Shown here in pieces: positions 404 through 23,104 of a stretch of 23,104 bases of DNA (positions within the stretch are counted from its first letter, which is position 1; each line of letters begins with the position of its first letter). Position numbers and translations under genes: made by a program. The DNA is taken from positions 1 to 23,104 of the forward strand of contig JAQIWT010000334.1 of assembly GCA_034696485.1 (NCBI GenBank). The letters are read 5' to 3'. A model generated the notes under the pieces. That model made no database searches. It was given only the letters and a program-made list of their open reading frames with translations, and had not been told where the DNA came from. Origin of the DNA: Isohypsibius dastychi. Lineage: Eukaryota; Tardigrada; Eutardigrada; Parachela; Isohypsibiidae.

Positions 404-3400
404 TTACAATAATAAGAAATCAGGGTCAGCTTCTATATCAGCCTTGTTGTCTGTGCATAAGTTTGGCAAGCTTTTCTCGTTCCCTTTATCAGAGACCTCT
501 GCTGCCCGATGTCCTCGTAGTAGATCTGACGCTTGGGTTTCTGCGACAACGGATTTCTTTGTCTCGTCCATCTGAGGAAGGTTGAATGTGGCCGCTTTGA
601 CTGGTTCAATGGATGTGGGAAAGCCATCCGCGCTTGATTCTACCACTGTGAGCATATCTGCCCATTGAACGGAGCATCCCCCGTCGTTTTGTTGTTGGTG
701 GAGTGGCCGCAGGTCGTTCGGGTCCTTCTTCCTTATTTCTACCGCTGTAAGTGTATCTGTCCATCTCACGTGGAGTGGCCGCAGGTCGTTCGGGTCCTTC
801 TCCTCGTCGGGTTCGTCCTGTGGCTGCTGTTGTTGAACCACGTCTAAATTTTGTGGCGAGTCTGACCGCAATAGTGGGAATAAAATAGCCCTATACCGCG
901 AGTCGTCATCCGCTATCACTTGTGTTTGGTCACTCGCTTGGCTAACGAGATCTGACTGTTGAACGATCCTAGCGGCATCTAATGTCGCTGCAGTTTGGAC
1001 TTGCGACCTGTCACCTGCTGCTAGCAAGGTCGCGATTGTCTCCGTGGTTGAATGACTTAGAGTATATGCAAACCGAATCGATCGAGTGCGTTCTGTCGCG
1101 TTTGGTGTGGTGTTTGACCACGCAAGCGTCAACTCGCACGCATCAGAGGCAACGTAAAAGTCATCGAGAATGTGACCAAATAGTATACGGTTGGGCCCAC
1201 TCCCGTCACTACCACCATTATTGGGCCTGATAGTTGTCGATGCAGACGATAAAGACGGTTGGTGAAAATCTGAGGATGGCGATGATTCTACAGAAAATAG
1301 AATGTCATGAGCGATCAATGTCCATGAATAGTCTAAATGATCTCCGCTGGACAAGTCGAATGATATCCTATGGGTCTTTCCGGGTTGAATGTGAATATCC
1401 GAAAACTGTCCCGGTCGCCCCCGTCCTTGAGAGATTCCTGTTTCCACATCGCTTCTGGCCGACATCATCTTCATGCGAGGCGTTACATTCGAAGCTGCCG
1501 CGAATCCATCACCACTATCGCCAACAACAGCTCCAGCGGCTCCGAAAAAATGTCGACCAAGTTCATCTTCATGCCCTTGCCATTCATCTGATGTCATCAT
1601 TGAGGATACAACACTCTCCCGCATTTCTATGTAGCGTAACGCCTTCATGCATCGAGTTTCTAAAGCGTCGCGGAAAGGGATCAAACTTCCCACCTTCGTT
1701 GAAGTGGAATTTCCCCCAAGACGTCGCGTCGGAGGCGTACGTGTTCGTGACCCCTTGAGTGCTTCGGAAAAGTACGCATGAGCCTGAAGGTACTTTTCTT
1801 GCCTCAAGTAGAGGGAGCCTCGCTCATATTGGCCGAATGCACAATACCACCACGTGAGACGATCGGGGGGGATGTTGGCAAACAACTTGTATAGAACATT
1901 CTCCGCTTTCTTATACTCCCCCTTGGCCGTATATGCGGCTCCGCACAATAACGCGCAGATTAGCATGTCGTCGCGCGCTTGTCGGCGAGTCATGTGGCGC
2001 TCAGGATCGGGATGGACCAGGCAGATCTCCGAATCGTACAGTACTGTCTCAAGTTGGCGTGTGGTTGAATCGAGCCATTCTGAGGCAAACTTGGTTTGGG
2101 CATGGTGCGTGGTAGCCCAAACTTCGTGGTCTACCCACTCGAATACGCCACCAAAGTAGGCAATCGCATATACCAACACTTTGGTGTTTGACGAGATCAA
2201 CTCTGGATTTGGTACGCTACGTGTCCAATTCATCGCTTGGAGTCGATCGGATATCATTTCATAGCATGCAGCGAGCATCATCGCGTCTTGGGCGTTGGTG
2301 ACGGTGTCGTATCCACCCAGGTTCACGCGCATAAGCAACCCACAGGAACGTATGTATCGAACACATCCACTCCAATCTCTTTGAGCAAACAGAAGCATTG
2401 CAATGTCACGTGCGAGGTGTGCGACGCCCGTACCAATCGGCTTGAGTGAAGCGTCTACAGATGGGGACGACGTCGGTAAGTTCGTCCCAGGTAATCTACT
2501 ATCGCGACGTCGAATTGTCATGACTTGACGCAATATCGCTTCAGCTTCTTTGCATCGGCCAAGTCTTGAGAGACATTTTGCGTGATACCACATGAAGATA
2601 GGCCACGTCCCTCGTGGAGGAGCCGGCTGTGACGACGACACATCTGTAGGCGTTTGTAGGGCCGTCGCGGACGATTTCATGTCTACACCAAGAGCTTCCA
2701 AGGCATATTGCAAGTAGACGGCTCGATCGGGACGATACTCATGGTTCGAGATGTACAAAGCATATGCAGCAAGAAACAGTCTTGAAAGGTTATGCACCTC
2801 ACCCCAGGGATGCGACGTTCGCATTACGCGGAGTAATCGAAGCATGCCTTGTTTGGGATTCCACACTTGACCCATGAGATCTTGACAGATGCGACGAACC
2901 CACTCTGGAGCATAACCCATTCCCATCTCCAAGCAACCAAGGACGATTTCCGAATATGCGAGGTTTGTATTTTGGCCCATGTTCACACCGTCTTGCATGA
3001 CAAAGGATCTGTGTGGATGGTCCTCAAAATCCAATCGCCGGACCATCTGTATCGCTCGCCGCAGTTGAATGGTGGCTTGTTTGTCGTTACCCACGTATAT
3101 TTGAACGAATCCACATGCTAGTGCGCATAGTGCGCCAAGCCCAGCCGAGTCAATTTCGTTTGGACTTTCTGATGGAGTTGGGGAATGCTTCGGTGGATCC
3201 CGTGTGGGCGGCCTTAGCGTCGAATCCAAGCCTCCTCGAGACAGGCTACCATGCGAAACATGAGAAGGCGTAGATAAGACAATGCTTCCGCGGTTGACCA
3301 TGAATGTTTGTGAAGGTTTCCGTGGAGCGGCTATCGAGAATCCCTTTGCAGTAGAGCCAACTGCCATGATTGAAGCAATATTACTGATGGATCTTCGGAT

Positions 3401-4120
3401 CGACGTGGATGATCGACCCGATGAAGAAGTCGGGGTTAGCAGTGTTGGTGGAATTGTTTGGACAGGTCGTGGAATTGCGACGACGAGGGATGTGGTCAGA
3501 GCCAACTTGGCCGCGCGGGAACAGATATCTTCTGCAATTTTGTAGCGTTCATAGACTGGCTTTGCAAGATCTGGGTCCATATCATCATCAAGGATCCATT
3601 GCATCATCACACAATGTGCAGCTCGCACATGACTAAGAAGCGGGCGGTCTTGATACTCGCGCGTGATCAAGACATCCATCGCGACTGCAAGTTCACCTTG
3701 CCAGATTCGTAACAAAGAATCGAGCCGAGACTCGATTCCATCCTTGTAATATTTACTTTCACGCCTTTTCATATGACCGATAGGAGGCGGGAGGGGATCT
3801 TGGTGATTTTCAACCATGTCATTCGCACGACCCCCACTATTGGATATGGAAGATGCCTGCATTTGTCGTTGTTCTGTGTTAGAGCGAGGGGATTGGCCCA
3901 GCGATTTTGAAAAGTTCAAACCTTGCCTTTCAGAATGCTCGCGACTTTCTTCTAAGGTGAGACCAGGCCGATTTAGCGATAACCGTTGAGAGGATACGCG
4001 TGATTTCCGTGAACCTAACGTATTGCGCAACGCCGGTGGAACCCGTCGATCGGCAGCATCTAAATCAAACACGGTCGGTTCATCGTCACCGTCTGTAGCG
4101 CTTGAAGTGACATGCTCCAT
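404..4120 (-). CDS. Large TPR-like repeat protein with a GOLD-like domain
   Basis: A 1238-residue protein, one of the largest here. Residues 1-115 are polar and probably disordered. From about 120 to 800 the chain is helical, with TPR/solenoid-like helix pairs: near 327-360, near 500-533 (GRCKEAEAILRQVM) and near 715-790 (KGEYKKAENVLYKLF, then KYLQAHAYFSEALKG). Around 905-1025 the pattern fits a GOLD beta-sandwich: a turn after IQPGK, the hDIxFsV-type strand AHDILFSVES, and a closing ELTLAWSNTTPN followed by RSIRFAYTLS, which parallels the wDNSys...sirY ending of GOLD domains. GOLD domains in p24, Sec14-like and ACBD3-type proteins bind lipids or proteins in membrane trafficking, so a membrane-trafficking or scaffold role is plausible but inferred. 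The C-terminus holds a duplicated KDPNDLRPLH segment. The start is the ATG at 4120; a TTG seven codons upstream is less likely. It is divergent from the 7TM gene across 152 bases. Confidence 0.8.
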   Translation of the reverse strand: MEHVTSSATDGDDEPTVFDLDAADRRVPPALRNTLGSRKSRVSSQRLSLNRPGLTLEESREHSERQGLNFSKSLGQSPRSNTEQRQMQASSISNSGGRANDMVENHQDPLPPPIGHMKRRESKYYKDGIESRLDSLLRIWQGELAVAMDVLITREYQDRPLLSHVRAAHCVMMQWILDDDMDPDLAKPVYERYKIAEDICSRAAKLALTTSLVVAIPRPVQTIPPTLLTPTSSSGRSSTSIRRSISNIASIMAVGSTAKGFSIAAPRKPSQTFMVNRGSIVLSTPSHVSHGSLSRGGLDSTLRPPTRDPPKHSPTPSESPNEIDSAGLGALCALACGFVQIYVGNDKQATIQLRRAIQMVRRLDFEDHPHRSFVMQDGVNMGQNTNLAYSEIVLGCLEMGMGYAPEWVRRICQDLMGQVWNPKQGMLRLLRVMRTSHPWGEVHNLSRLFLAAYALYISNHEYRPDRAVYLQYALEALGVDMKSSATALQTPTDVSSSQPAPPRGTWPIFMWYHAKCLSRLGRCKEAEAILRQVMTIRRRDSRLPGTNLPTSSPSVDASLKPIGTGVAHLARDIAMLLFAQRDWSGCVRYIRSCGLLMRVNLGGYDTVTNAQDAMMLAACYEMISDRLQAMNWTRSVPNPELISSNTKVLVYAIAYFGGVFEWVDHEVWATTHHAQTKFASEWLDSTTRQLETVLYDSEICLVHPDPERHMTRRQARDDMLICALLCGAAYTAKGEYKKAENVLYKLFANIPPDRLTWWYCAFGQYERGSLYLRQEKYLQAHAYFSEALKGSRTRTPPTRRLGGNSTSTKVGSLIPFRDALETRCMKALRYIEMRESVVSSMMTSDEWQGHEDELGRHFFGAAGAVVGDSGDGFAAASNVTPRMKMMSARSDVETGISQGRGRPGQFSDIHIQPGKTHRISFDLSSGDHLDYSWTLIAHDILFSVESSPSSDFHQPSLSSASTTIRPNNGGSDGSGPNRILFGHILDDFYVASDACELTLAWSNTTPNATERTRSIRFAYTLSHSTTETIATLLAAGDRSQVQTAATLDAARIVQQSDLVSQASDQTQVIADDDSRYRAILFPLLRSDSPQNLDVVQQQQPQDEPDEEKDPNDLRPLHVRWTDTLTAVEIRKKDPNDLRPLHQQQNDGGCSVQWADMLTVVESSADGFPTSIEPVKAATFNLPQMDETKKSVVAETQASDLLRGHRAAEVSDKGNEKSLPNLCTDNKADIEADPDFLLL
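698..801. repeat. Perfect 32-base direct repeat inside the GOLD protein gene
   Basis: Positions 698-729 and 770-801 are identical over 32 bases, with a spacing of 72 bases (24 codons, in frame). Flanking sequence is also related: the segment at 642-667 resembles 741-766 at an offset of 99. The repeat therefore looks like a tandem duplication of a block coding RWTDTLTAVE and KDPNDLRPLH, with a small Gln/Gly-rich insertion in one copy. Perfect identity across degenerate codon positions suggests a recent duplication or ongoing homogenisation. Confidence 0.9.
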
Positions 4121-4272
4121 CTTTTCTTTCACCAATCTCAATTTTGGTATTTGTTGGTGTGCTGCAGTGAGTCAGTCCTACGACGCAGTCGGGCAAACAG
4201 TACGCACACACAAATAGACAAAATTTTGATTTTTGATTCAAGATTAGAATCGAGATCCTGTGATGTTGAGAT

Positions 4273-9417: not shown

Positions 9418-11634
9418 ATGTCGGACCACGAGTTCGAGGCTCTGGAAGCATCGTCGACAACTCAACGGACACGAAAGCCAAGTGATGGTACACTAGACAA
9501 GCGAATTAAGCTTAGTCAAGTAGATTCGATCAGTAAACTTGTGGAAAAGTATGATAAACTCGAGAGCGAATGGAATGAATTGAAGAGAACCTATTTGAGA
9601 AAATTGGCAAGCTTAGAGTCCAAAGATAACAATCGGTTACCAACAGAAGTGAAGAAGAAGTTGTTAAATTATTTGAGAAATGTTCGTGATGAATTTTTTG
9701 GGTATGAACCACCACCGCTTAAAAAGGAATTCCGAAATATTCGCAATGACGAAAACGTCGTCTTGTTGGAACGTCTTCTGGATGCGCTTAAAACTGAGCT
9801 GACGACAGTTACAGCTGCAATTGAACAACAGGAGGCCGTGATAATGGAACAATATAAAAATGCTGATAAAGTCGTGAATAACGCTATAGAGCAGGCCATG
9901 ACTGTCGAGAACATGGCAGCGAAAGATGCTACAGAAGCTGCGAGGCTTGAGGCCGAGAACCTGGCAGCGAAAGAAGCAGAAGCTGCTGTAGCTGCGAGGA
10001 TTGAAGCCGAGAACCTGGCAGCGAAAGAAGCAGAAGCTGCTGAAGCGGCAAGGATTGAGGCCGAGATAAAGGCGGCGAAAGAAGCAGAAGCTGCAGAGGC
10101 GGCAAGGATTGAGGCCGAGATAAAGGCGACGAAAGAAGCAGAAGCTGCGAAGATTGAGGCCGAGCACCAAACAGCGGAACAAGTAGAAGCTACGAGAATT
10201 GCGGCCGAGAACCAAGCAGCAAAAGAAGCTTCAGAAGCCGCAAAAATTGCGACCGAGAGAGTAGCTTCAGTGTTTAAGCGTGATCTTGAGAAACTCGAGG
10301 AACAGTATAATGTTATTCTCAAAACTGCCCAGAAAATTAAGTCTGATTTATCAAGCTTCAAGAATGGTTTTCAGGACAAGTGCACGGAAGTCCATCGAGC
10401 TATGGCTATGTTGGGGGATTTGATGAATCTGAACCAACTCAGAGCTGAACTTATAGACGTCGAAGAGGAATCCAACCGCTATGATCCATGGGACGACTTT
10501 CATAACAAACGTGACAGTTATAACCAATGGAATTCGGATGCGCGTACCAACCCGCAAGCATTGGAAGATGGCATACAGCTCATAAAATCGATGCAGAGCG
10601 AACTTTCCACGGTGCGGGATAACATCGTAAAAAAGAAAATCAATTTGCGCGGCACCTTTGCTGCCATCCAGAGAAGAGTAGATGAGCTGGAAACGATCAA
10701 GCAGGGTAGAGATGAGGCTTCCAAACGCGCAGCTAATTCCTCAATCGCGAGAAAGAAGGACATCAGTGAAAGGAATAAGATTGCCAGACAGAACTCTGCA
10801 GAAGCGTTCAAGCGACATATGAGAAACCTTGAAGATGAAGAGAAATGGTTAGTAGATGGAATTCAGAAACTAGATGATGAACTTCAACGTTCCGCAGAAC
10901 AACACGATGCAGAGAGAATAACAGGTCTCAAGACCGAAATTGATATCGTCAGATTGCGCTTACATCATATAGTACAAGGACAAGTCTTGCATGTTGATGA
11001 TTTCCATTCTCGATCAAGACACGAAATCTCAAAGGCAGAGAGAATCATCAAACGTCTAGATGGTATAACCAGCTCGAAGCTGAAAACACCTATAAGTGAT
11101 GAGCAGCAGTTTCAAAGGCTGATTAGAATGAGAGACGAGTTATCCCGTATCAAGGAATTGATTGAAGCGACATCAACTTCCAGGTTAGAGGCGTATCGCA
11201 AAACGATCGACGGATACGACTCGTTCGATCGCAAAGGTCACGTCATGACCACCATCCAAGTCGTACAAGGGATATTGCAAGCATATGAAACCTGGGAACG
11301 CGACATCGGGAGTCAATTCACACAGATTGTAAATGCCATGTCAGGTTTGAATCCACATTTTGAGACTCTTCACAATCTTGATGTGCGCCTGGCGGAAGAG
11401 GTCGCCCTGGCGGAGGAGGTGGCAGCATCACGAGCTTTCGAAGATGAGGCCAAATTGGATGTACCCCTTCCACCATCTCCAACGCCACAGGAAACACCAA
11501 TACAGCGCATAGATGAGTTGACGGGCTTGAAGTACATTCCAAACTTCATTGATTATCTAGAGGCAAACCTGAAAAGGATGAACGATGCCCCAACGTCCAC
11601 TCCAAGATTCGTGCAACCACACACGACAATCTAA
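9418..11634 (+). CDS. Long coiled-coil protein with Ala/Glu-rich repeats
   Basis: A 738-residue, almost entirely helical protein rich in Glu, Lys, Ala and Arg with few Pro except at the end. Residues 1-160 are heptad-like. Residues 172-281 carry about six imperfect copies of a 19-residue unit of the form AARIEAENLAAKEAEAAEA, reminiscent in composition of TolA-type or myosin-like rods. Residues 285-660 are further coiled coil with bends. The last 80 residues include a short duplication (LAEEVALAEEVA) and a Pro-rich linker (DVPLPPSPTPQETPIQ). There is no signal peptide or membrane span. A filamentous scaffold, tegument-like or internal virion protein is a reasonable guess; no enzyme motif is visible. 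The ATG at 9418 follows the previous stop by 35 bases, and the membrane-protein gene begins 40 bases after its end. Confidence 0.8.
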   Translation: MSDHEFEALEASSTTQRTRKPSDGTLDKRIKLSQVDSISKLVEKYDKLESEWNELKRTYLRKLASLESKDNNRLPTEVKKKLLNYLRNVRDEFFGYEPPPLKKEFRNIRNDENVVLLERLLDALKTELTTVTAAIEQQEAVIMEQYKNADKVVNNAIEQAMTVENMAAKDATEAARLEAENLAAKEAEAAVAARIEAENLAAKEAEAAEAARIEAEIKAAKEAEAAEAARIEAEIKATKEAEAAKIEAEHQTAEQVEATRIAAENQAAKEASEAAKIATERVASVFKRDLEKLEEQYNVILKTAQKIKSDLSSFKNGFQDKCTEVHRAMAMLGDLMNLNQLRAELIDVEEESNRYDPWDDFHNKRDSYNQWNSDARTNPQALEDGIQLIKSMQSELSTVRDNIVKKKINLRGTFAAIQRRVDELETIKQGRDEASKRAANSSIARKKDISERNKIARQNSAEAFKRHMRNLEDEEKWLVDGIQKLDDELQRSAEQHDAERITGLKTEIDIVRLRLHHIVQGQVLHVDDFHSRSRHEISKAERIIKRLDGITSSKLKTPISDEQQFQRLIRMRDELSRIKELIEATSTSRLEAYRKTIDGYDSFDRKGHVMTTIQVVQGILQAYETWERDIGSQFTQIVNAMSGLNPHFETLHNLDVRLAEEVALAEEVAASRAFEDEAKLDVPLPPSPTPQETPIQRIDELTGLKYIPNFIDYLEANLKRMNDAPTSTPRFVQPHTTI
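9931..10260. repeat. 57-base tandem repeats coding the Ala/Glu-rich rod
   Basis: Within the coiled-coil gene, a unit of about 57 bases (19 codons) is repeated about six times. Its recognisable core is GAGGCCGAGAA or GAGGCCGAGAT followed by GCGAAAGAAGCAGAAGCTGC. Central copies are very similar and the outer ones are more diverged and partly shortened, as expected of in-frame repeat expansion by slippage or unequal recombination. Confidence 0.88.
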
Positions 11635-13178: not shown

Positions 13179-14141
13179 TTATTCATCTTCCATCTCTTCA
13201 TCATCGTCTTCACCTTCACCTTCATCGATGCTGATAACATTGTCACCACCAGTACCATCGACCCCATCCAGATCGTCGCGACTCGACTCTTCACTAGAAT
13301 CATCCAAAGAAACTATTTGATCCGTACGTTTCTTATGTTTCTTGGTTGCCATCTTACGATGACGTTTCAGAAAGAATTTCCGCGGAAGGTGTGGTCGTCC
13401 AGTCTCCGCATCACTAATGACACCAGATTTCAATTTACAAGCAAACGCCCACTCATATTGACCTTGAATCAGATTGATTAGGCTTGGATACCGCGTAGCC
13501 ATAGGCCAAACTGTTGATGCATGTTGTTGCTTCGAGGATACGGACATTGCAGGATCCGATCCTCTCACACTCATGTAAGACGGAAGCAACTCCCTTGCCG
13601 CATAGATGGCATACAAAGATGCTTCTACAGCATCTGGATCAAACTTCCTCTTTTCAGTAAATGTACGCCTAAACCGAACGAGTGCATCCGGATCTAGTTC
13701 GTACATGTAGTTCACTGCGAGCTCACAACTCTTTTGTTTGCGAACGGCATAGAGTGGATGTGAAGTTCCGAAATACGTTCGCACCGTTTGCGGTCTCAAT
13801 TGAACCACGAGCATATGAGGGTATTTTGCCAACAACGCAGCATGTATGACGGATGTAATTGCGATGGCCAACTTGTTGCTTTTAGGAACTACCATCGCTT
13901 CCATACACGTCAACGTCACAAAGGTGAATACTTCGTCTTCAATCATGAGCCAGCGCGCCACCACTTCACCCAAATTCAGCCAAGACAACTTCACTCCGGG
14001 CTTTAGATAATCCTTTAGAGAGATTTTTTTAATCACTACTGCTTGCGCATACGGGTCCACGACGCCGAAGCCAAATTTACTAGTACCAGGATCTATGCCT
14101 GCGACCAAAGTTGGCGGTCGCCGTGTTGTTGTTGTCGACAT
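13179..14141 (-). CDS. Holliday-junction resolvase, RuvC fold, A22/Cce1-like
   Basis: A 320-residue protein likely to cleave four-way DNA junctions arising in replication and recombination. Residues 12-29 (LVAGIDPGTSKFGFGVVD) carry the first RNase H-fold strand with the catalytic Asp17 and the following Gly-Thr typical of RuvC-like resolvases. Glu81 in TCMEAMVVP fits the second acidic residue. The segment RKFDPDAVEASLYAIYAA (about 165-182) matches the final helix that normally reads K-x-D-D-x-x-D; here Asp168, Asp170 and Glu173 are the candidates, so the last residue may be Glu instead of Asp. After the domain come a basic tract (about 253-274, including KKHKKR) and a long acidic tail to the end, absent from the short poxvirus A22 proteins; it may bind basic partners. 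The start at 14141 puts the catalytic strand at the usual distance. It is divergent from the zinc-finger protein gene. Confidence 0.85.
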   Translation of the reverse strand: MSTTTTRRPPTLVAGIDPGTSKFGFGVVDPYAQAVVIKKISLKDYLKPGVKLSWLNLGEVVARWLMIEDEVFTFVTLTCMEAMVVPKSNKLAIAITSVIHAALLAKYPHMLVVQLRPQTVRTYFGTSHPLYAVRKQKSCELAVNYMYELDPDALVRFRRTFTEKRKFDPDAVEASLYAIYAARELLPSYMSVRGSDPAMSVSSKQQHASTVWPMATRYPSLINLIQGQYEWAFACKLKSGVISDAETGRPHLPRKFFLKRHRKMATKKHKKRTDQIVSLDDSSEESSRDDLDGVDGTGGDNVISIDEGEGEDDDEEMEDE

Positions 14142-14381: not shown

Positions 14382-17183
14382 ATGGGTCCGAGCCGTCGCC
14401 CTGAGACGGGCAACTCAACACACAACGACGCTGTAGGTTTGAAGTGGAGCAAGAGGCGGCGCAAAGAAGGTCAAGTGGACTTTGCCACAGATCTTCGAGA
14501 TAAGCTTGAACATCTCATGTGGGACCAACAGTCTCGCTTGCAGAAAGAGCTAGGAGCTGGCCACTTTGCACCAACGGCCTACGCTCGCTTCTTTCCAGGA
14601 AGTGTAAACGCGGCAAAGCTTCAACAACGTATAGACTCATCTGCGTCATCCACGAAGAATTTACCAGGGCGCGGGAGACCACAACAAGAATTGAATAGGC
14701 GACGCTGTGAGATAATTTCACCTTACCTTCTCAAAATGGGTGTATCTCGAGCGCACATTGAATGGTACATCTTTTCATGTAATCCTGAGATGCTCCAACA
14801 ATGGGACAAAAAGGCAGGCGTTGAAGAGAGCCCCACAACGTCGGGAAACTGGAAGACGCGGCTAGCTAGCGCAATTGTTCGTACACCATTCTTTGATCAC
14901 GATCTCATCAAGAATTATGCGCGACAAGCTTTGGATGTTGTTCCAGCCACATCAAACCAATCTGAGGATGAAATGAACCAGATTCACTTGACAAAGCCGA
15001 AACGTCGAAGTGGTCAAGGAATGGCATACTCACACAGCATCGACTATGAGGATACGCCAATTCTAATTGAGCATATTGACCCAACGCCAATTGCAACGGC
15101 GTTGATTGGCATGGAGGCCACATTTGTCCACTTTGAGCGAGCGGTGGGATCTTCAGTTGGAGTTGCCACTCCACATCCAAGTGGACTAGGCATTATCGTC
15201 CCTCTAGATCGCGAAGAAGCTTCACCAATGTCATTTTCCATATCTTCGCCAACATCATCCTCATCTGCAGGAGCAACAACGACCACCACCTCGAAGACTA
15301 GAACAGCAACAACAACATCGGCGGGAAATGGTAGCACCACGTCCTCACACGATACGCTGTCGGGTCACTTGGTCCTCAACATTGAGGACTTGGGCATGAT
15401 GGCACTCTATGATATGAAAAATAGTCCAAAAGTCGAAAGTGGTGGCAGAGTGTATGGGAATCTCGGGAGGGAGAGTGATTCAAGGCATCCAGCATGTAAC
15501 AGCACCAAAGGCGATGGTGCAATGGATGATTCTCATGAACCGTTCGAACCATTTGATTATCTTGTATGTCCAGATGGAACAATTCGACCTCTCGGTCGCG
15601 TGTACCTAGCCGGTCATTTGGAGCCAAAGATATCTTGTGCGAACGAGAGCTTGGGTGAATATGGGAACCAAGAAGCTCTGGTACACGCGATTGGAGATGT
15701 TCCATACCAAAGCATGAATCCATTTTCAAAGAACGATGAAGGCATTAGTTCTAAAATCACTCCGGGTGAAATGGCAATGTTTAGATCACAGAGACGAGCT
15801 TTGAATGCGATCATGAATGAAGGGTGGATAACAAAGTGTTGTCACGCCGACCCAATCGACATTCTGGAAGCGTATACAATATTCAAAAAACAAGTTCACG
15901 CGCTCATTCTACAGGAGCGAAGCTTTGACGTAAACTCGACGACGCTGACAGATTCACTAAAAGACCAAATGCGGGCAGCTCGGTACATCATGCAACGGCT
16001 AGAGGTAACCCCCTGGTTTCGATCATACATGTTTGTTACATTATTTCATCGGGTCATGGATGCTAAAAATCCATTCCTTGGACAGACGTCCATGCGCGTG
16101 ACTGGCTGGGGCGATACAAGTGAGAAGGGCTTGATATTGAGCACAGTTCCGCATTTTATGGGTCGTCTTGCTCATTTGTCGATAGACACGGATCCCAACT
16201 ATTATGAGGACGAAGATAACATCGGCTTTCGAACAAATTACGCGAGCACAAAGCGAACGCCGTTTGAACCACCCGTGGAGAAAACTAAAATAAGTGAAAC
16301 GGACTGTGACATACGCGCAGTCACAGAGGCGGTCTTGGACTCGACTCTTCGCGCACTGAACCTGAGCGATGAGGACATCGAAAAGGGTTTCGAAAATCGA
16401 TGGGATAAAACGTTTGCAATTCGTTTTCGCGCCTCTGCGGACGATGGAAATCGCGTGCTAGGGGGGAGCATATTTCAGTATCGCCGCAAAGAATTTATGA
16501 TGCCGCGAGGAGCTACGCCTGGTCGAACTCCACGTAACAGAATCACCGCACAATACGGCGATACCGCAGGAGTTGAGCATATGCCATTTTTCCAAATCTT
16601 CCGAGATCGAGCAACTGTGGTGAATAGGCGCATACGCACATTAGTTGCGGGTGAATGGTCATGGCAACCATCGAATGTATTCAGGCGTGGCAAGCTGAGA
16701 ATTGAGAACCAGGCGAAGTCAACGGCGTTGGTGCTATCTACAAAATCTTTCACAGATCGACCATGCTACCTGTTCATGGAAAAGGATGATATGCAAGAAG
16801 ATTTTGTTGAGATCACGCTTGCAAGGAAGAATCATCGATTCGGTTTACACTCGGAGAAGTCGATGGGTTTGGCAACAAGCACTGCTGTTTCTGATCATGG
16901 TGGTCCAAGCAGCGAAGTTGCAAGTTTGAAAACCGAGTCTCAGTTGTTTGAAATGTTGTTGGCTACTAGAAAGCCATTAGAGAAGATGAAGGCGATTACA
17001 GACCTGCGACGTTCGCGCATGTCCGAGGGTGAGCTATGTAGCGCGATGCTAGCTGGGTCGAAATGTGCGAATGACACATGCCTCAAATTTCATCCTGCAA
17101 ACTTGATTCGTCGAGCCGTACTTACGGTGGATCATAGAGCCAAGACTACTATTATGAGCGTCGAGTATGTACCAGAGTGCTGA
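14382..17183 (+). CDS. Large unknown protein ending in a CCCH zinc finger
   Basis: A 933-residue protein. The N-terminus is basic (LKWSKRRRKEGQ at about 20-31), followed by helical segments. A Ser/Thr/Ala-rich linker lies near 283-323. A long globular region follows (about 340-850) in which no family is recognised; it includes LVCPDGTIRPLGRVYLAG and a helical block around EMAMFRSQRRALNAIMNEGW. Near the C-terminus Cys886, Cys895, Cys900 and His904 have the spacing C-x8-C-x4-C-x3-H, followed by Pro, which is the signature of CCCH zinc fingers that usually bind RNA and sometimes DNA. A nucleic-acid-binding role is therefore likely; catalytic activity is not evident. The ATG at 14382 is preceded by an A-rich GAAAAG. 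The SNF2 ATPase gene starts 55 bases after the stop in the same direction, suggesting shared regulation or function. Confidence 0.78.
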   Translation: MGPSRRPETGNSTHNDAVGLKWSKRRRKEGQVDFATDLRDKLEHLMWDQQSRLQKELGAGHFAPTAYARFFPGSVNAAKLQQRIDSSASSTKNLPGRGRPQQELNRRRCEIISPYLLKMGVSRAHIEWYIFSCNPEMLQQWDKKAGVEESPTTSGNWKTRLASAIVRTPFFDHDLIKNYARQALDVVPATSNQSEDEMNQIHLTKPKRRSGQGMAYSHSIDYEDTPILIEHIDPTPIATALIGMEATFVHFERAVGSSVGVATPHPSGLGIIVPLDREEASPMSFSISSPTSSSSAGATTTTTSKTRTATTTSAGNGSTTSSHDTLSGHLVLNIEDLGMMALYDMKNSPKVESGGRVYGNLGRESDSRHPACNSTKGDGAMDDSHEPFEPFDYLVCPDGTIRPLGRVYLAGHLEPKISCANESLGEYGNQEALVHAIGDVPYQSMNPFSKNDEGISSKITPGEMAMFRSQRRALNAIMNEGWITKCCHADPIDILEAYTIFKKQVHALILQERSFDVNSTTLTDSLKDQMRAARYIMQRLEVTPWFRSYMFVTLFHRVMDAKNPFLGQTSMRVTGWGDTSEKGLILSTVPHFMGRLAHLSIDTDPNYYEDEDNIGFRTNYASTKRTPFEPPVEKTKISETDCDIRAVTEAVLDSTLRALNLSDEDIEKGFENRWDKTFAIRFRASADDGNRVLGGSIFQYRRKEFMMPRGATPGRTPRNRITAQYGDTAGVEHMPFFQIFRDRATVVNRRIRTLVAGEWSWQPSNVFRRGKLRIENQAKSTALVLSTKSFTDRPCYLFMEKDDMQEDFVEITLARKNHRFGLHSEKSMGLATSTAVSDHGGPSSEVASLKTESQLFEMLLATRKPLEKMKAITDLRRSRMSEGELCSAMLAGSKCANDTCLKFHPANLIRRAVLTVDHRAKTTIMSVEYVPEC

Positions 17184-17238: not shown

Positions 17239-19143
17239 ATGGCCGAACTCGTCAGAGTTCCAGAACATCCTGGCGTGCTAGCTCTTTTATTAAAAAAACG
17301 CATGTACCCGGTCACACCAAATGAAATTCGAAACATAATAGCACTCCAACCCCCGGAAATGCAACTCCAGTTGCGTCGAACCCTCGGCTTCGTAGCAGAG
17401 AGGTCGAGGTTTATGTCAGACTCTGCGAGTTCTGCGTCGTCAGCAGCTAATCAATCAAGCATTGATCCCCGGCGCTTAGTAGGCCTACTTCCACATCAAA
17501 AAGTTGGGGTCAACAAGATCATTCGTGAGCACAACGGGAGATGTTTAGTGGCGTTTGACATGGGCACCGGAAAGACACCAATAGCCGCGGTAGTGTGCGA
17601 TCATTACGGAGGTCTTGCTTGTTTGATTGTACAATCTGGGAAAATTAGTGATTGGGATGATCATATGCAGCGGTGGGCACGCACTTTGTGCAAGATCTCT
17701 GATCGTGATCCAAACAAAGATCCGGTCATGGTCATCCGAAAGTCGTCTGATATCTATGAAAAAGGGTTAGCACCGAGTGCAACGTCAGATTCACAACGCA
17801 GAGTGCGCAATAAGGCGAAATCAACTTCTACCACTATGGACGATGTGAGTACATTCCCAATCATGACACCCAAGCGACATGGGTCAAGTGGTGTCGCGAC
17901 GACTGAATCGCCCCAAAAGCGAACAAGGATGGTTCATAGGCAGGTAAGTCGAAAGTCACAGCCGGGGGAACTTGAGAACGTGGAAATGGACGTAGAATAT
18001 GGTGACGAGGACGATGATGACGACAATGACGATTCTGAATCTCTTTGTTCGAGGCCGCTGAAATCTCTCGATGGCATTAATGTGATTATTATTTCACACT
18101 CGTTAGTTTGTCGGGGAGTGTTAACCAAATTGCTTGACCACCACTCTTCTGAAAACCCCATACGGACACTTGTTGTCGACGAAGCGCACCACATTAAGAA
18201 TTATCACTCAAAGCTAACCCGATATGTATGGGAGCTTTCAACTCGTGCGCGGAATGTCTTGTTGCTCACCGCAACGCCACAGCCTAATCGAAACATCGAA
18301 CTGTTTGCATTATTACACGCACTTTACCCCAAGTGGTTTCCGTGCCGATTTGAATTTGCGAGACGTTACTGCAACGGGAGAATGGATCGTTTTGGACAAT
18401 GGAATGACAAGGCGTCAACTCGACGTGAGGAAATGTCAATTGTGATCGGCGCCGCGATGATTCGATGTGACAGGACCGTGGTGCTAAAGGGTCTCCCCAG
18501 GCTTCAACGAATCTACCATACAGTATCTCTACGCGAAGATGAAGAGTTTAACCGTGCATATCGCCAGGTAAAGGTTAAGTTGCAACATGCATCCTCTGAA
18601 AGTGAGCGGAATGCGTTGGTGACTCAAGCCCACATCCTGACGAGCAAGGCGAAAATATTCTGGTCTATTCCATTCATCCTGCAAATCATTCGTGAAATGC
18701 CCCGAAATCAATGTGCGCTCATCTTTTGCGAGTACCTCGACACAGTGGCCGCGATATCCCAAGAACTTTGTCGTTCTGGTGTCAAACACTGCACGATCAC
18801 GGGCGAAGTTGAAGTCAAAAAGCGAGATGAACTGGTTCGCAGAATAAGCAGTGGACAGGGTCCCGAACGTTGTGTTATTGCTACTCGAAAAACGTGCGGA
18901 GAAGGCCTAAACTTCTGTCCAGGCGTTACCCGTGTAGTGCATGCAGAGCTAGCGTTCACTTCAGCGGATATGGACCAAAGTGACACCCGTGCACATCGAT
19001 TCGGGGCACAGCAGACCATTTACAGCCATTGGCTAGTCTCACCAAACTCTTATGATGACGATATGATGGAACTAATTCAATCAAAATCTAAGTTAGCCCA
19101 ACAAACTGTTGGTAGCCATGCGGGCGTTACAAACGACGGATAA
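17239..19143 (+). CDS. SNF2-family ATPase, SMARCAL1/ZRANB3-like
   Basis: A 634-residue superfamily 2 ATPase. In order: a Q-motif-like LLPHQKVGVNKI (83-94), motif I DMGTGKT (107-113), motif II DEAH (314-317), motif III LLTATP (342-347), motif V-like TRKTCGEGLNF (549-559) and motif VI HRFGAQQ (586-592). The last is the SNF2 form of the arginine-finger motif. The phrase GRCLVAFDMGTGKT resembles fork-remodelling members such as SMARCAL1 and ZRANB3, which anneal or reverse replication forks; that role here is inferred. Between motifs Ia and II an insertion of about 110 residues (160-275) is low complexity and ends in an Asp run. The frame is open upstream to 17167, overlapping the previous gene by 17 bases. 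The ATG at 17239 avoids this and has an AAAATGG context. Co-orientation with the CCCH protein gene and proximity to the resolvase suggest a recombination or repair module. Confidence 0.88.
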   Translation: MAELVRVPEHPGVLALLLKKRMYPVTPNEIRNIIALQPPEMQLQLRRTLGFVAERSRFMSDSASSASSAANQSSIDPRRLVGLLPHQKVGVNKIIREHNGRCLVAFDMGTGKTPIAAVVCDHYGGLACLIVQSGKISDWDDHMQRWARTLCKISDRDPNKDPVMVIRKSSDIYEKGLAPSATSDSQRRVRNKAKSTSTTMDDVSTFPIMTPKRHGSSGVATTESPQKRTRMVHRQVSRKSQPGELENVEMDVEYGDEDDDDDNDDSESLCSRPLKSLDGINVIIISHSLVCRGVLTKLLDHHSSENPIRTLVVDEAHHIKNYHSKLTRYVWELSTRARNVLLLTATPQPNRNIELFALLHALYPKWFPCRFEFARRYCNGRMDRFGQWNDKASTRREEMSIVIGAAMIRCDRTVVLKGLPRLQRIYHTVSLREDEEFNRAYRQVKVKLQHASSESERNALVTQAHILTSKAKIFWSIPFILQIIREMPRNQCALIFCEYLDTVAAISQELCRSGVKHCTITGEVEVKKRDELVRRISSGQGPERCVIATRKTCGEGLNFCPGVTRVVHAELAFTSADMDQSDTRAHRFGAQQTIYSHWLVSPNSYDDDMMELIQSKSKLAQQTVGSHAGVTNDG

Positions 19144-19215: not shown

Positions 19216-19761
19216 TCAATAATCTAGAACGACGTCGACGGGTACGGCTTGTTTGTCCCAGAAGTGTTTGGCATCTTTGAAGATGGATTTGATTCTCTTA
19301 GGTTTGAGATCCTTCACAAACTGCGATCCCACTCCCAATCTCCTAAAGTCTTCGTGAACCCAAAGATATCCAATGTTGTTTTCGGAATCGCGCGTGCAGA
19401 AAGCTGGTATGGTAGCCTCATGCTCGTTGCCACAGATGAAGTGGTTCGGTTTGTAAAGCGAACAAGGTTGTTTTGGAATGATTATCATGGCATAAAAGCG
19501 ACCTTGACGAAACCTTTCAAGTATGCTTTCCCTGTAAGACCAAAAATCGGTATCTGAGTCGTCTGACTGTTGTTGGAGTTCGCTCATGATTGCCCAAAAC
19601 TGTTCGGCGTCGGCGATAACCGTGCGACGCTCAGAACACTCAACGAGACGCTTTAGCATTCTCCGGTTAGATCGACCTCTTTCATAGTTGTCCAAGCTCA
19701 ATCTTGGTTTTGTGTCGATCTTTTGTTTCTTCCTCATTTTCACACTCTTCTTTTTATTCAT
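19216..19761 (-). CDS. GNAT-family acetyltransferase with a basic N-terminal tail
   Basis: A 181-residue protein. The C-terminal half carries GNAT motif A: strand NIGYLWVHEDF (129-139) followed directly by RRLGVGSQFVKDL. This gives the acetyl-CoA pyrophosphate-binding loop R-x-x-G-x-G at residues 140-145 and the start of the following helix. Upstream, FYAMIIIPKQPCSL and EATIPAFCTR fit the beta strands that precede motif A. The substrate is unknown. The first 45 residues are strongly basic (MNKKKSVKMRKKQK, SNRRMLKRL) and could send it to the nucleus or to nucleic acid, so a protein or histone-type target is conceivable. It is short for the family, with only a rudimentary motif B (about 155-175). 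The ATG at 19761 is the only in-frame start before the basic tail. It is divergent from the importin-like gene (150 bases) and convergent with the SNF2 gene (72 bases). Confidence 0.72.
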   Translation of the reverse strand: MNKKKSVKMRKKQKIDTKPRLSLDNYERGRSNRRMLKRLVECSERRTVIADAEQFWAIMSELQQQSDDSDTDFWSYRESILERFRQGRFYAMIIIPKQPCSLYKPNHFICGNEHEATIPAFCTRDSENNIGYLWVHEDFRRLGVGSQFVKDLKPKRIKSIFKDAKHFWDKQAVPVDVVLDY

Positions 19762-19911: not shown

Positions 19912-21594
19912 ATGAATGAAAATACGCTTCTCTTGAATCCTGGTCAACAACGACCTCGCGTGACTATCGTGGGTGACAGGCGAGCCAGGTATCGTGCACA
20001 GAGGACTACTCGCTTGGCGAACGAGCGCAAAAGTGAACTGGCTTCAAGACGTGAGCTAACGTTTCGCTCAACTCAACTAAAAGATTGCTTAGACCGGTTC
20101 ATGCTCATTTCCATGTTGGATGAGTTAACGTGGATCTGCGAGAGTTTGTACAAGTTTCAACACCTTCTCAGCGGTACACTGGTTGAGTGTTTAACTGGCA
20201 TAGCGCGTATTGAAAGAAATGTAACTAAACTACAAACCGCAGCAATACATGGCATTTCTTGTGATGACCTTAGCGAGAGTCAGAGCCATGAAATACATAC
20301 CGATCATACCAAATGGATCGAACTGTCGCGGGAAATGGTGCAGAGAGAGCTTCCCGCATTATGGCATATGCTGACCCATGAGTTAAGGCAGATGCAGAAA
20401 GGCTTTAGCGAGAGTGTAGAGACTGATCTAACATGTTTGTTGGAGCGAGTAGACGTGCTGAAGGAGTTACATGCGTTCGATCAGAGACTATTTGAACTTG
20501 AATTAATGGCTGAGTTTTTGACTAAAGAGGATTTACTCGCTCGTCGTATTCGAATCATTCATGAACTTTGTAGCCTTGAATACGCCTCTTGTATACAAAA
20601 GTCTATGGTTGAATCCGGTGTGGTCTCGTCAATGGTAACTATGATCCGATCGCTTGGAGACGGCGATTTGAATACAATGCGCGAGGTGTGTTCGATTCTA
20701 CGGGTTCTAAGTGACGGTGCTCATCAACAAACACGTTACTTGGTTGACTGTGGGGTGATTCCAATCATGCTTGCTGTTACCTTGGTCGATGTAAATCGAT
20801 GGATTTTGGATGCCGATCTCGACCAAGTCAGTGAAGCATACCGAGTCGCTATTCTTTCTTGTCATTGGCTTCAAATCAAGTCTGATGCAATTTGGATTCT
20901 ATCAAACATCGTATTAGCTGACGGGGAGTATTGTCAATACATCATGACTGAGTTACCAATGAATCTGGATCGACGCCAAATACATTCAATTAATCGCTCG
21001 GCTGTCTTATCCACAGCTGGAGCGTGTCCAGGCTCATGTGGTGTTACCACAGACAATGGACTCATTTCCTATCTTTGTATGTGCATGGAGATGTCATTCG
21101 TCACACTTACAGAAGACAACGGATTGATAAAACCGTCTATAGATATACCTAGCAGTCAGAATCTAGTTGGAGGCGTTCATGAGATTGATTCGGTGATACA
21201 TAATCCATCTACAACTCAAGAATCCATACGATATACACTTATGGGTCGCGTTGCTCTCCTACTAACCAAACTTCTGACCTGCTCTCGATTTGATGCGACT
21301 GTGACATCGGGACTTCATTATCGCATTTCAAGCATCGCTATGAGGTATGTTTACACTCTTGCAACCAATAACGGTCGATTTGTTGAGTTTCTGGTCCTTA
21401 TTAACGAAATCTTGGACGATCTCGACAAGCGGATTGGCGATGAATGGTTGTTTGAGAGGTCTCGGATTACTCGCAACTTGTCCTCGATGAGAGCACCAAA
21501 TTTGATCTCCCGAGACGATGATTCCGGAATGCAGAAGACAGCTCGCCTTTTTGACGCGTTGGGGTTGTCAAGTCGAAATGTTACCTCGATGTAA
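19912..21594 (+). CDS. Importin-alpha-like armadillo-repeat protein
   Basis: A 560-residue protein resembling karyopherin alpha, the adaptor that carries nuclear-signal cargo to importin beta. The N-terminus (about 22-56; RRARYRAQRTTRLANERKSE then LASRREL) has the spaced Arg/Lys pattern of an importin-beta-binding domain. A diverged helical region follows (60-205). Residues 211-245 (RRIRIIHELCS, then SMVESGVVSSMVTMI) match armadillo repeat 1. Residues 257-291 (LSDGAHQQTRYLVDCGVIPI) match repeat 2, but lack its usual Trp and Asn. Residues 322-345 (IKSDAIWILSNIVLADGEYC) match repeat 3, with the W-x3-N pair (Trp328, Asn332) that grips cargo side chains. Later repeats are interrupted by inserts and hard to follow. 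Length is close to the cellular protein, about 520-560 residues. A changed cargo preference is likely, given the lost pair. The start at 19912 is the first ATG in frame. Confidence 0.72.
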   Translation: MNENTLLLNPGQQRPRVTIVGDRRARYRAQRTTRLANERKSELASRRELTFRSTQLKDCLDRFMLISMLDELTWICESLYKFQHLLSGTLVECLTGIARIERNVTKLQTAAIHGISCDDLSESQSHEIHTDHTKWIELSREMVQRELPALWHMLTHELRQMQKGFSESVETDLTCLLERVDVLKELHAFDQRLFELELMAEFLTKEDLLARRIRIIHELCSLEYASCIQKSMVESGVVSSMVTMIRSLGDGDLNTMREVCSILRVLSDGAHQQTRYLVDCGVIPIMLAVTLVDVNRWILDADLDQVSEAYRVAILSCHWLQIKSDAIWILSNIVLADGEYCQYIMTELPMNLDRRQIHSINRSAVLSTAGACPGSCGVTTDNGLISYLCMCMEMSFVTLTEDNGLIKPSIDIPSSQNLVGGVHEIDSVIHNPSTTQESIRYTLMGRVALLLTKLLTCSRFDATVTSGLHYRISSIAMRYVYTLATNNGRFVEFLVLINEILDDLDKRIGDEWLFERSRITRNLSSMRAPNLISRDDDSGMQKTARLFDALGLSSRNVTSM

Positions 21595-21665: not shown

Positions 21666-21839
21666 ACGTATAGTAAAATTGGAAGTCATAAATCGTGATT
21701 AAAAATGTCCAAAACCAGATTTTAATCTGAGTTTTCCGAATTTGAGTTTAACGTATAGTAAAAATGAAAGTCGAAAATTGTGAGAAAAAATGTCCAAAAT
21801 CAGCTTTTCATGTGGGTTTTTTGAGTTTTTTATCGAAAG
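21666..21839. repeat. Left array of about 86-base A+T-rich units
   Basis: Two units begin with CGTATAGTAAAA at 21666 and 21752, 86 bases apart. They differ in their second half: the first (type alpha) contains the near-palindrome AGATTTTAATCT at 21717-21728, and the second (type beta) contains CAGCTTTTCATGTGGG and then a T-rich run. The same two types recur in the right array, so the two-unit order is conserved. No coding potential is apparent; the short open frames are not protein-like. Confidence 0.88.
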
Positions 21840-21881
21840 GTATTGACCTCCTAGGGTTAGTAGGGTTACCCCCCCTACCCC
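21840..21881. repeat. 42-base telomere-like element, left copy
   Basis: This element directly follows a beta-type unit and is identical to 23058-23099. It contains TAGGGTTAGTAGGGTTA followed by a C-rich run, so the G-rich telomere-like side and the C-rich side can pair: GTAGGG at 21860-21865 with CCCTAC at 21873-21878 around a 7-base loop. The resemblance to TTAGGG telomere repeats is only two units long. Confidence 0.85.
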
Positions 21882-22080
21882 GAAAAATTTTTCAGGTGAC
21901 TCAACTTTATGCTTTACTAGTAAAGTACAAAAGTCAGATTTTTTTCGTCATTTTACTAGGCAAACGACCAAAAAAAGCCGAAAATTGATGTCAAAACCTA
22001 TGAAAACTCTGTTTTGGAGGGGTCAATATTTATCGTATCACTTACGAACCACTACCGTTTACGGTTTCCCTCAACTCGAA
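21882..22080. other. A+T-rich non-coding spacer with a 14-base palindrome
   Basis: No gene is visible. A perfect palindrome, CTTTACTAGTAAAG, lies at 21912-21925, and its half TTTTACTAG recurs near 21952. Sequence from about 22010 onwards looks like a badly degraded upstream copy of the following 160-base repeat. Confidence 0.6.
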
Positions 22081-22378
22081 ATTTCAGATTCCATCGAATC
22101 TCGAGGACCATGGCGGACCTTGTCTCGACCAGAAAGTCACCAGTTTGAGGTCCAAAAGTCACGTTTTAGCTGAGAGTCGCTCACTCGACTTTTTTCTACG
22201 TTATACGTTGTATAACTCGATGATCTTACGCTCGACCGAGATTTCAGATTCCGTCGAATCTCGAGGACCATGGAGGTCGAAAAAGTCAAGTGAAAATCTC
22301 CATTTTGACCTTCAGAAGCCGTGTTTTAACTGAGAGTCGAGACATTGACAGATTTCTACATTTTACGTGTATAACTGG
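22081..22378. repeat. 160-base imperfect tandem repeat with conserved hairpins
   Basis: Two copies start with ATTTCAGATTCC at 22081 and 22241, exactly 160 bases apart, and stay alignable over the length (shared blocks: TCGAATCTCGAGGACCATGG, CTGAGAGTCG, TTTCTAC, GTATAACT). Each contains a 6-base-stem hairpin AGATTC-(4)-GAATCT at 22086-22101 and 22246-22261. The loop sequence differs between copies while the arms are kept. Small open frames in this stretch are shared by-products of the repeat. Confidence 0.85.
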
Positions 22379-22799
22379 CCGTTTTATACATTTTCTAATT
22401 TCTCTGCCCTGGTTCAGCCAACTCCCCCTCGAGCTGTCCTCGCTCGTCCTCCGCTTCCCCTGTATGGCCATGTCCCCATCGCGCTCCCCTGTACGAGCCG
22501 TTCCGTCGGCTGCATCGCTTGTTTGCTCTCAGCCCTCCGTGGGAGGATATCTCGGTCCACTCTTGATGTCGCCTCGCACCACTATCCCCAGTCTTATACG
22601 TTATACCGCTAGTCACTAATGCAGCTCCCCATCCCCCTGGCCAACGCTGCCGCTATGAGATTTCTCAGTTCCATCCACAGTCCACAGTTTCTCGTACTTA
22701 ACGTCGTCGTGGTTTGTGATCTGTCTCACCATGCTGAGGAGGAACTCAAATTTCCCTTTGGCGTAATTCCCAAATATGTCGAACATCAAAGGCTGCACC
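22379..22799. other. G+C-rich island without a convincing gene
   Basis: Between about 22400 and 22660 composition shifts sharply to C-rich (CCCCTCGAGCTGTCCTCGC, CCGCTTCCCCTGTATGGCC), unlike both the repeats around it and the genes to the left. Overlapping short open frames exist on both strands, the longest 109 codons, but none has a protein-like composition or a recognisable motif. It may be a gene remnant or inserted sequence of other origin. From 22660 to 22799 composition is ordinary and no feature is seen. Confidence 0.5.
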
Positions 22800-23057
22800 T
22801 ATATATATGAAATGGAAATAAAAACAGGCGAGTAAAACTATTGAAAACCAGCTTTTCATGTGGGATTTCCGAAGTTGAGTTTAACGTATAGTGCAATTGG
22901 AAGTAACAAAATGTGAGTAGAATTGATCAAAACTAGATTTTAATCTGAGATTTTCGAAATTGAGTTTAACGTATAGTAAAATTGGAAGTAAAAAAATGTG
23001 AGAAAAAATGTCGAAAATCAGCTTTTCATGTGGATTTTTTGAGTTTTTTATCGAAAA
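22800..23057. repeat. Right array of about 85-base A+T-rich units
   Basis: Three units can be aligned, starting near 22800 (degenerate), at 22885 and at 22970, in the order beta, alpha, beta by the criteria of the left array. The alpha unit has AGATTTTAATCT at 22935-22946. The alpha-beta pair at 22885-23057 corresponds to 21666-21839 with a shift of about 1218 bases. Confidence 0.87.
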
Positions 23058-23099
23058 GTATTGACCTCCTAGGGTTAGTAGGGTTACCCCCCCTACCCC
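23058..23099. repeat. 42-base telomere-like element, right copy
   Basis: Identical over 42 bases to 21840-21881 and in the same position relative to a beta unit, 1218 bases further on. The window ends five bases later, so whether a third period follows cannot be seen. Confidence 0.88.
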
Positions 23100-23104
23100 C
23101 AAAA

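What the first reader, a model, noticed from the sequence alone, without database searches (positions are those of the whole stretch)
19912..21594. An importin-alpha-like adaptor encoded beside viral-type recombination genes
The sequence shows a basic, IBB-like N-terminus, armadillo repeats 1-3 in the right order, and one intact W-x3-N cargo pair (Trp328/Asn332). Importin alpha is a cellular nuclear-import adaptor, and I do not know of it as a standard gene of large DNA viruses. If the contig is viral, it may encode its own adaptor to import selected viral proteins or to compete with the host adaptor. Repeat 2 has lost the Trp/Asn pair that forms part of the major cargo site, so binding may be altered or selective.
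Basis: partly seen in the sequence, partly recalled or inferred. Interest (0 to 1): 0.78.

Follow-up and report, generated by a model that had tools for sequence, protein, structure and literature searches.

The report
Divergent armadillo protein, not importin alpha
The gene encodes a real but very diverged armadillo-repeat protein whose nearest recognisable relative is the nuclear-import adaptor importin alpha; it lacks that family's hallmark parts, and it sits on a compact, possibly viral piece of DNA assembled together with an animal genome.

Summary
The ORF at 19912-21594 (560 aa) is real. Its armadillo (ARM) similarity is above chance by three tests. Uncut, it aligns to importin-alpha ARM1-3 in order over residues 233-374. 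The "IBB-like" N-terminus is not supported: 1317 of 5000 shuffles score as well and no Pfam IBB is found. Only about three of ten repeats are detectable. I therefore do not file it as an importin alpha.

The window is an entire contig in an assembly that also holds intron-rich animal contigs (with the single, canonical importin alpha) and an intron-poor cellular contig. The window is 94% coding, nearly devoid of recognisable families, and shares dispersed repeats with similar contigs. That looks like a large DNA virus, but no capsid, VLTF3, D5 or viral polymerase was found, so viral origin is unproven. The neighbouring SNF2 and RuvC-like genes are not virus-specific.

Best reading: an ARM scaffold, derived from or convergent with importin alpha, that binds peptides of partner proteins without importin beta. 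It may compete with the host adaptor, but that is inference.

The parts
19912..21594 (+). 560-aa ARM-repeat ORF (the finding)
20608..21033 (+). residues 233-374: stretch aligned to importin-alpha ARM1-3 by hhalign, unedited sequence
20692..20706 (+). ARM2 position of the lost Trp/Asn pair (Ser261, Val265)
20779..20871 (+). about 31-residue insert between ARM2 and ARM3 (residues 290-320), absent from importin alpha
20893..20907 (+). ARM3 W-x3-N pair, Trp328/Asn332, the only one in the protein
19216..19761 (-). neighbour: weak GNAT acetyltransferase-like ORF, under Pfam cut-off
17239..19143 (+). neighbour: SNF2-family helicase (ATG 17167 or 17239)
14382..17183 (+). neighbour: 933-aa ORF without recognisable relatives
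13179..14141 (-). neighbour: RuvC-like ORF (N-terminal GIDPG motif; weak profile and phage matches)
21666..23104 (.). ORF-free right end with 221-nt direct repeats and repeats shared with contigs C1260, C433, C1382, C103

Best explanation
The ORF encodes a strongly diverged ARM solenoid. Its best-preserved part descends from, or is very like, repeats 1-3 of importin alpha. It has lost (or never had) the importin-beta-binding domain and most of the Trp/Asn ladder, and has gained a roughly 200-residue helical N-terminal region and an insert between repeats 2 and 3. Most likely it works as a peptide-binding scaffold for a few partner proteins rather than as an importin-beta-dependent import adaptor. 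If its source is a virus that uses the host nucleus, it could hold viral cargo or compete with host importin alpha. Shown: the ORF, the ARM similarity and the order of repeats, the single W-x3-N, no detectable IBB, and a compact contig poor in known families. Inferred: helical fold, peptide binding, biological role, viral source.
For: Three independent comparisons place ARM similarity above shuffles or at significant E. hhalign on the uncut sequence gives the ARM1-3 register. Both single-sequence models are almost entirely helical in that region, though at pLDDT about 42. No IBB. The canonical importin alpha in the assembly is a separate, intron-rich gene on C1578 closest to KPNA6/KPNA1, so this ORF is not that gene.
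Against: The signal rests on about 140 residues and a single sequence, because no homologue was found. Other ARM families (Vac8, beta-catenin, ciliary ARM proteins) were not scored one by one: only the top 60 PDB hits are visible. The W-x3-N pair also fits the general ARM consensus, so it is not diagnostic of importin. The structure predictions are too poor for a fold test. Host-adaptor competition is untested.
Confidence: 0.55

Rival explanations
1. It is a genuine, virus-encoded importin-alpha adaptor that imports selected viral proteins through importin beta.
For: ARM1-3 register and one cargo-site pair; basic N-terminus; compact contig with few known families.
Against: IBB no better than shuffles; only about three repeats detectable; no hallmark viral gene in the assembly (searches had no positive control); no importin alpha found in IMG/VR with the two motifs used.
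Confidence: 0.12
2. It is a cellular ARM-repeat protein of an intron-poor microbial eukaryote (for example an early-diverging fungus or another protist) co-assembled with the animal; the neighbours are also cellular genes and the poverty of known families reflects a poorly sampled lineage or a subtelomere.
For: Another contig of the assembly, C333, is clearly an intron-poor cellular eukaryote with SelO, COQ5, Nup84 and an MPN/MitMem_reg (eIF3f-like) gene; SNF2 and RuvC-like proteins also occur in cells; eukaryote-like start contexts.
Against: Window codon usage differs from C333 (21 of 2000 permutations as far apart); gaps are much shorter (medians 100 and 438 nt); families over cut-off 1 of 19 against 7 of 10 (p 0.0005); C1260 and C433, which share the repeat, show no Pfam family either.
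Confidence: 0.35
3. The ARM similarity is only convergent helical-repeat resemblance; the protein is an unrelated alpha-helical repeat protein.
For: Each single alignment is weak (i-E about 0.2; 12.7 bits); the Pfam gathering score is not reached.
Against: No shuffle or reversed control reaches the real score, and the other window proteins that scored were at or below -1.5 bits. Repeats align in the right order.
Confidence: 0.15

Closest known systems
Importin alpha (karyopherin alpha; Pfam IBB + Arm)
   Same: ARM1-3 register over residues 233-374; QQT-x-x-x-x-x-x-G-x-x-P loop between ARM2 and ARM3; one W-x3-N at ARM3
   Different: No IBB signal; ARM2 Trp/Asn lost; ARM4-10 not detectable; about 200 residues before ARM1; 31-residue insert between ARM2 and ARM3
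Consensus-designed ARM proteins (YIIIM5AII and relatives)
   Same: Among the top PDB matches
   Different: Artificial consensus; shows ARM character, not ancestry
Pfam PF00514 Arm in general (Vac8, beta-catenin, ciliary ARM proteins)
   Same: Sub-threshold Arm match at residues 272-285
   Different: These families were not compared one by one

Membership tests
Importin alpha | N-terminal importin-beta-binding (IBB) domain | tested here: not met
   No Pfam IBB in residues 1-83; 2.7 bits against 85-96 for true IBBs, 1317 of 5000 shuffles as high
Importin alpha | Array of about ten ARM repeats | tested here: not met
   Only about three repeats detectable by profile; repeats diverged beyond detection cannot be excluded
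Importin alpha | Trp/Asn ladder of the major NLS site (ARM2-4) and the minor site (ARM6-8) | tested here: not met
   One W-x3-N only, Trp328/Asn332; ARM2 pair is Ser261/Val265
Importin alpha | Binds NLS cargo, importin beta and CAS | not testable with these tools
   needs biochemistry
ARM-repeat superfamily | Sequence-profile similarity to ARM repeats above chance | tested here: met
   16.2 bits against shuffle maximum 7.7; hhalign 42.1 against 32.5; PDB E 7.5e-8; Pfam just under cut-off
ARM-repeat superfamily | ARM solenoid fold | tested here: inconclusive
   Two single-sequence AlphaFold2 models almost all helical but pLDDT about 42; no fold search made on them
Nucleocytoviricota (source of the contig) | Hallmark genes: major capsid protein, VLTF3, D5 helicase-primase, family B polymerase | tested here: not met
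   None in the assembly beyond an intron-containing polymerase; capsid and VLTF3 searches rang in no control, and the assembly may be incomplete or masked

The most novel reading that the evidence does not exclude
A large DNA virus of an animal or of its associated microbe has captured importin-alpha ARM repeats, dropped the IBB, and uses the remnant as a decoy or cargo-holding platform that does not need importin beta: a viral nuclear-import adaptor derivative with no described counterpart that I found.
Probability: 0.2. Interest if true: 0.75.

Novelty: new variant of a known kind. Interest (0 to 1): 0.42.

Why it matters
Viruses commonly exploit host importin alpha, but four literature searches found no report of one encoding its own. 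If the source is viral, this would be a captured and stripped-down import adaptor and a natural test of what an ARM groove can do without the IBB. If the source is cellular, it is a fast-evolving ARM paralogue of modest interest. The compact contig itself, nearly free of known families and tied to similar contigs by repeats, may be the more interesting object.

Tried and rejected
Single-sequence AlphaFold2 of the whole ORF and of residues 181-357: pLDDT about 42, too poor for a fold search, so none was made. Relatives in IMG/VR for the ORF, SNF2, RuvC-like, 933-aa, membrane and coiled-coil proteins: none beyond generic SNF2; importin alphas as an alignment query also found none. A PDB search with the 31-residue insert cut out raised importin scores to E about 1e-13; the cut was chosen after seeing the alignment, so I do not count it as evidence. 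The idea that the ORF is the animal's importin alpha was rejected: that gene is on C1578, intron-rich and canonical. The animal and the microbe were not identified. I first suspected a sliding clamp in C1260; no profile or PDB match supported it.

Full report
The ORF. Window 19912-21594 (+) is an intact 560-aa ORF with ATG in a eukaryote-like context, present once in the assembly.

Is it ARM? Pfam gives only Arm, at E 0.089 for the whole protein and 0.00056 (20.3 of 20.6 bits) for residues 200-350. Against the PDB the best hit is importin alpha 8g4j at E 7.5e-8, and all 60 hits shown are importin alphas or designed ARM proteins. That E-value sums several target repeats matching mostly the same query stretch (232-312); the best single alignment has i-E 0.21, so it overstates the evidence. 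A profile from five importin alphas scores the ORF at 16.2 bits; the best of 3000 shuffles reaches 7.7, the reverse is negative, and the other window proteins that scored are at or below -1.5. A single-repeat profile gives 10.4 against a shuffle maximum of 7.3 for the whole sequence, but its best single match (5.0) is within the shuffle range (6.4). hhalign of the uncut ORF aligns residues 233-374 to importin ARM1-3 in register, score 42.1 against a maximum of 32.5 in 200 shuffles, probability 56%. ARM homology is therefore likely, and the order ARM1-3 is supported.

Is it importin alpha? The only W-x3-N is Trp328/Asn332, aligned to the ARM3 pair; the ARM2 pair is Ser261/Val265. The Pfam Arm consensus as I know it also contains such a motif, so it is not diagnostic. 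The N-terminus scores 2.7 bits against an IBB profile, where true IBBs score 85-96, and 1317 of 5000 shuffles do as well. No further repeats were detected by profile; residues 472-500 look ARM-like by eye only. Importin-alpha membership fails on the IBB, on the number of repeats and on the Trp/Asn ladder.

Where does the window come from? It is the whole of contig C334 in a 30.4-Mb, 1648-contig assembly. Other contigs sampled are animal-like (a GPCR, a P450, a chitin-binding protein, read by eye from the ORFs), with an intron-rich canonical importin alpha on C1578 closest to KPNA6/KPNA1. Contig C333 is an intron-poor cellular eukaryote with SelO, COQ5, Nup84 and an MPN/MitMem_reg gene, so the assembly appears mixed. 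The window is unlike both: 94% coding between 404 and 21594, median gap about 100 nt against 438 in C333 (p 0.0002 with C1260 pooled), and 1 of 19 proteins over a Pfam cut-off (window, C1260 and C433 together) against 7 of 10 tested in C333 (p 0.0005). Its codon usage is homogeneous from end to end and differs from C333 (21 of 2000 permutations). Repeats in its ORF-free right end recur, in inverted orientation, at both ends of C1260, at the start of C433, and in C1382, C103 and others. C1260 and C433, as far as read, also show long unspliced ORFs without a recognised family. This fits a large DNA virus or a very divergent compact genome.

Against a virus: no major capsid protein, VLTF3 or D5 helicase-primase, and only an intron-containing family B polymerase, were found in the assembly. 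The capsid and VLTF3 searches had no positive control, and contigs shorter than about 10 kb seem to be missing. Six window proteins found no relative in IMG/VR beyond generic SNF2 matches. Dinucleotide composition does not separate the window from the animal contigs.

The neighbours. 17239-19143 is a clear SNF2 helicase with a strong match to the phage family phrog_62 (5.5e-53), although individual phage hits are only 21-26% identical. 13179-14141 has an N-terminal GIDPG motif, weak RuvC profile matches and a weak match to the RuvC of Pseudomonas phage Phabio (E 0.01). Both kinds of protein also occur in cells.

How it might work. The likeliest picture is an ARM solenoid that displays a peptide-binding surface without an importin-beta handle, hence a scaffold or competitor rather than an import adaptor. 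Peptide binding and competition are inferred, not shown. Two single-sequence AlphaFold2 models are almost entirely helical in the ARM stretch but have pLDDT about 42 and carry little weight. Four literature searches turned up no virus-encoded importin alpha.

Noticed in passing
window 21666-23104: ORF-free right end with 221-nt direct repeats (89%) and repeats that recur at both ends of C1260 in inverted orientation and in C433, C1382, C103, C1372 and C1614.
   Followed up: partly
G000 contig C333 (L042, L029, L043): Intron-poor cellular eukaryote contig inside an otherwise animal-like assembly: a co-sequenced microbe or contaminant.
   Followed up: partly
G000 contig C1260 (L065, L067, L068): ORF-dense contig with no Pfam family over cut-off; a 375-aa serine/threonine-rich ORF with several N-glycosylation motifs and a C-terminal hydrophobic stretch, and a 388-aa ORF with a weak Herpes_UL31 match (E 0.017), probably chance.
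   Followed up: partly
window 9906-10240: 54-nt tandem repeats inside the 738-aa coiled-coil ORF (9418-11634).
   Followed up: no
window 404-4141: 1245-aa TPR-like ORF (ATG probably near 4117) with no intron, unlike the animal genes of the assembly.
   Followed up: no
G000 contig C433 (L066:192-1199): ORF with a 'FVSYAW...WMDVAMVDQH' motif that resembles a domain I recall from protists; no Pfam match.
   Followed up: no
G000 contig C968 (L011): ARM-repeat exons followed by SAM-like sequence, possibly a SARM1-like animal gene.
   Followed up: no
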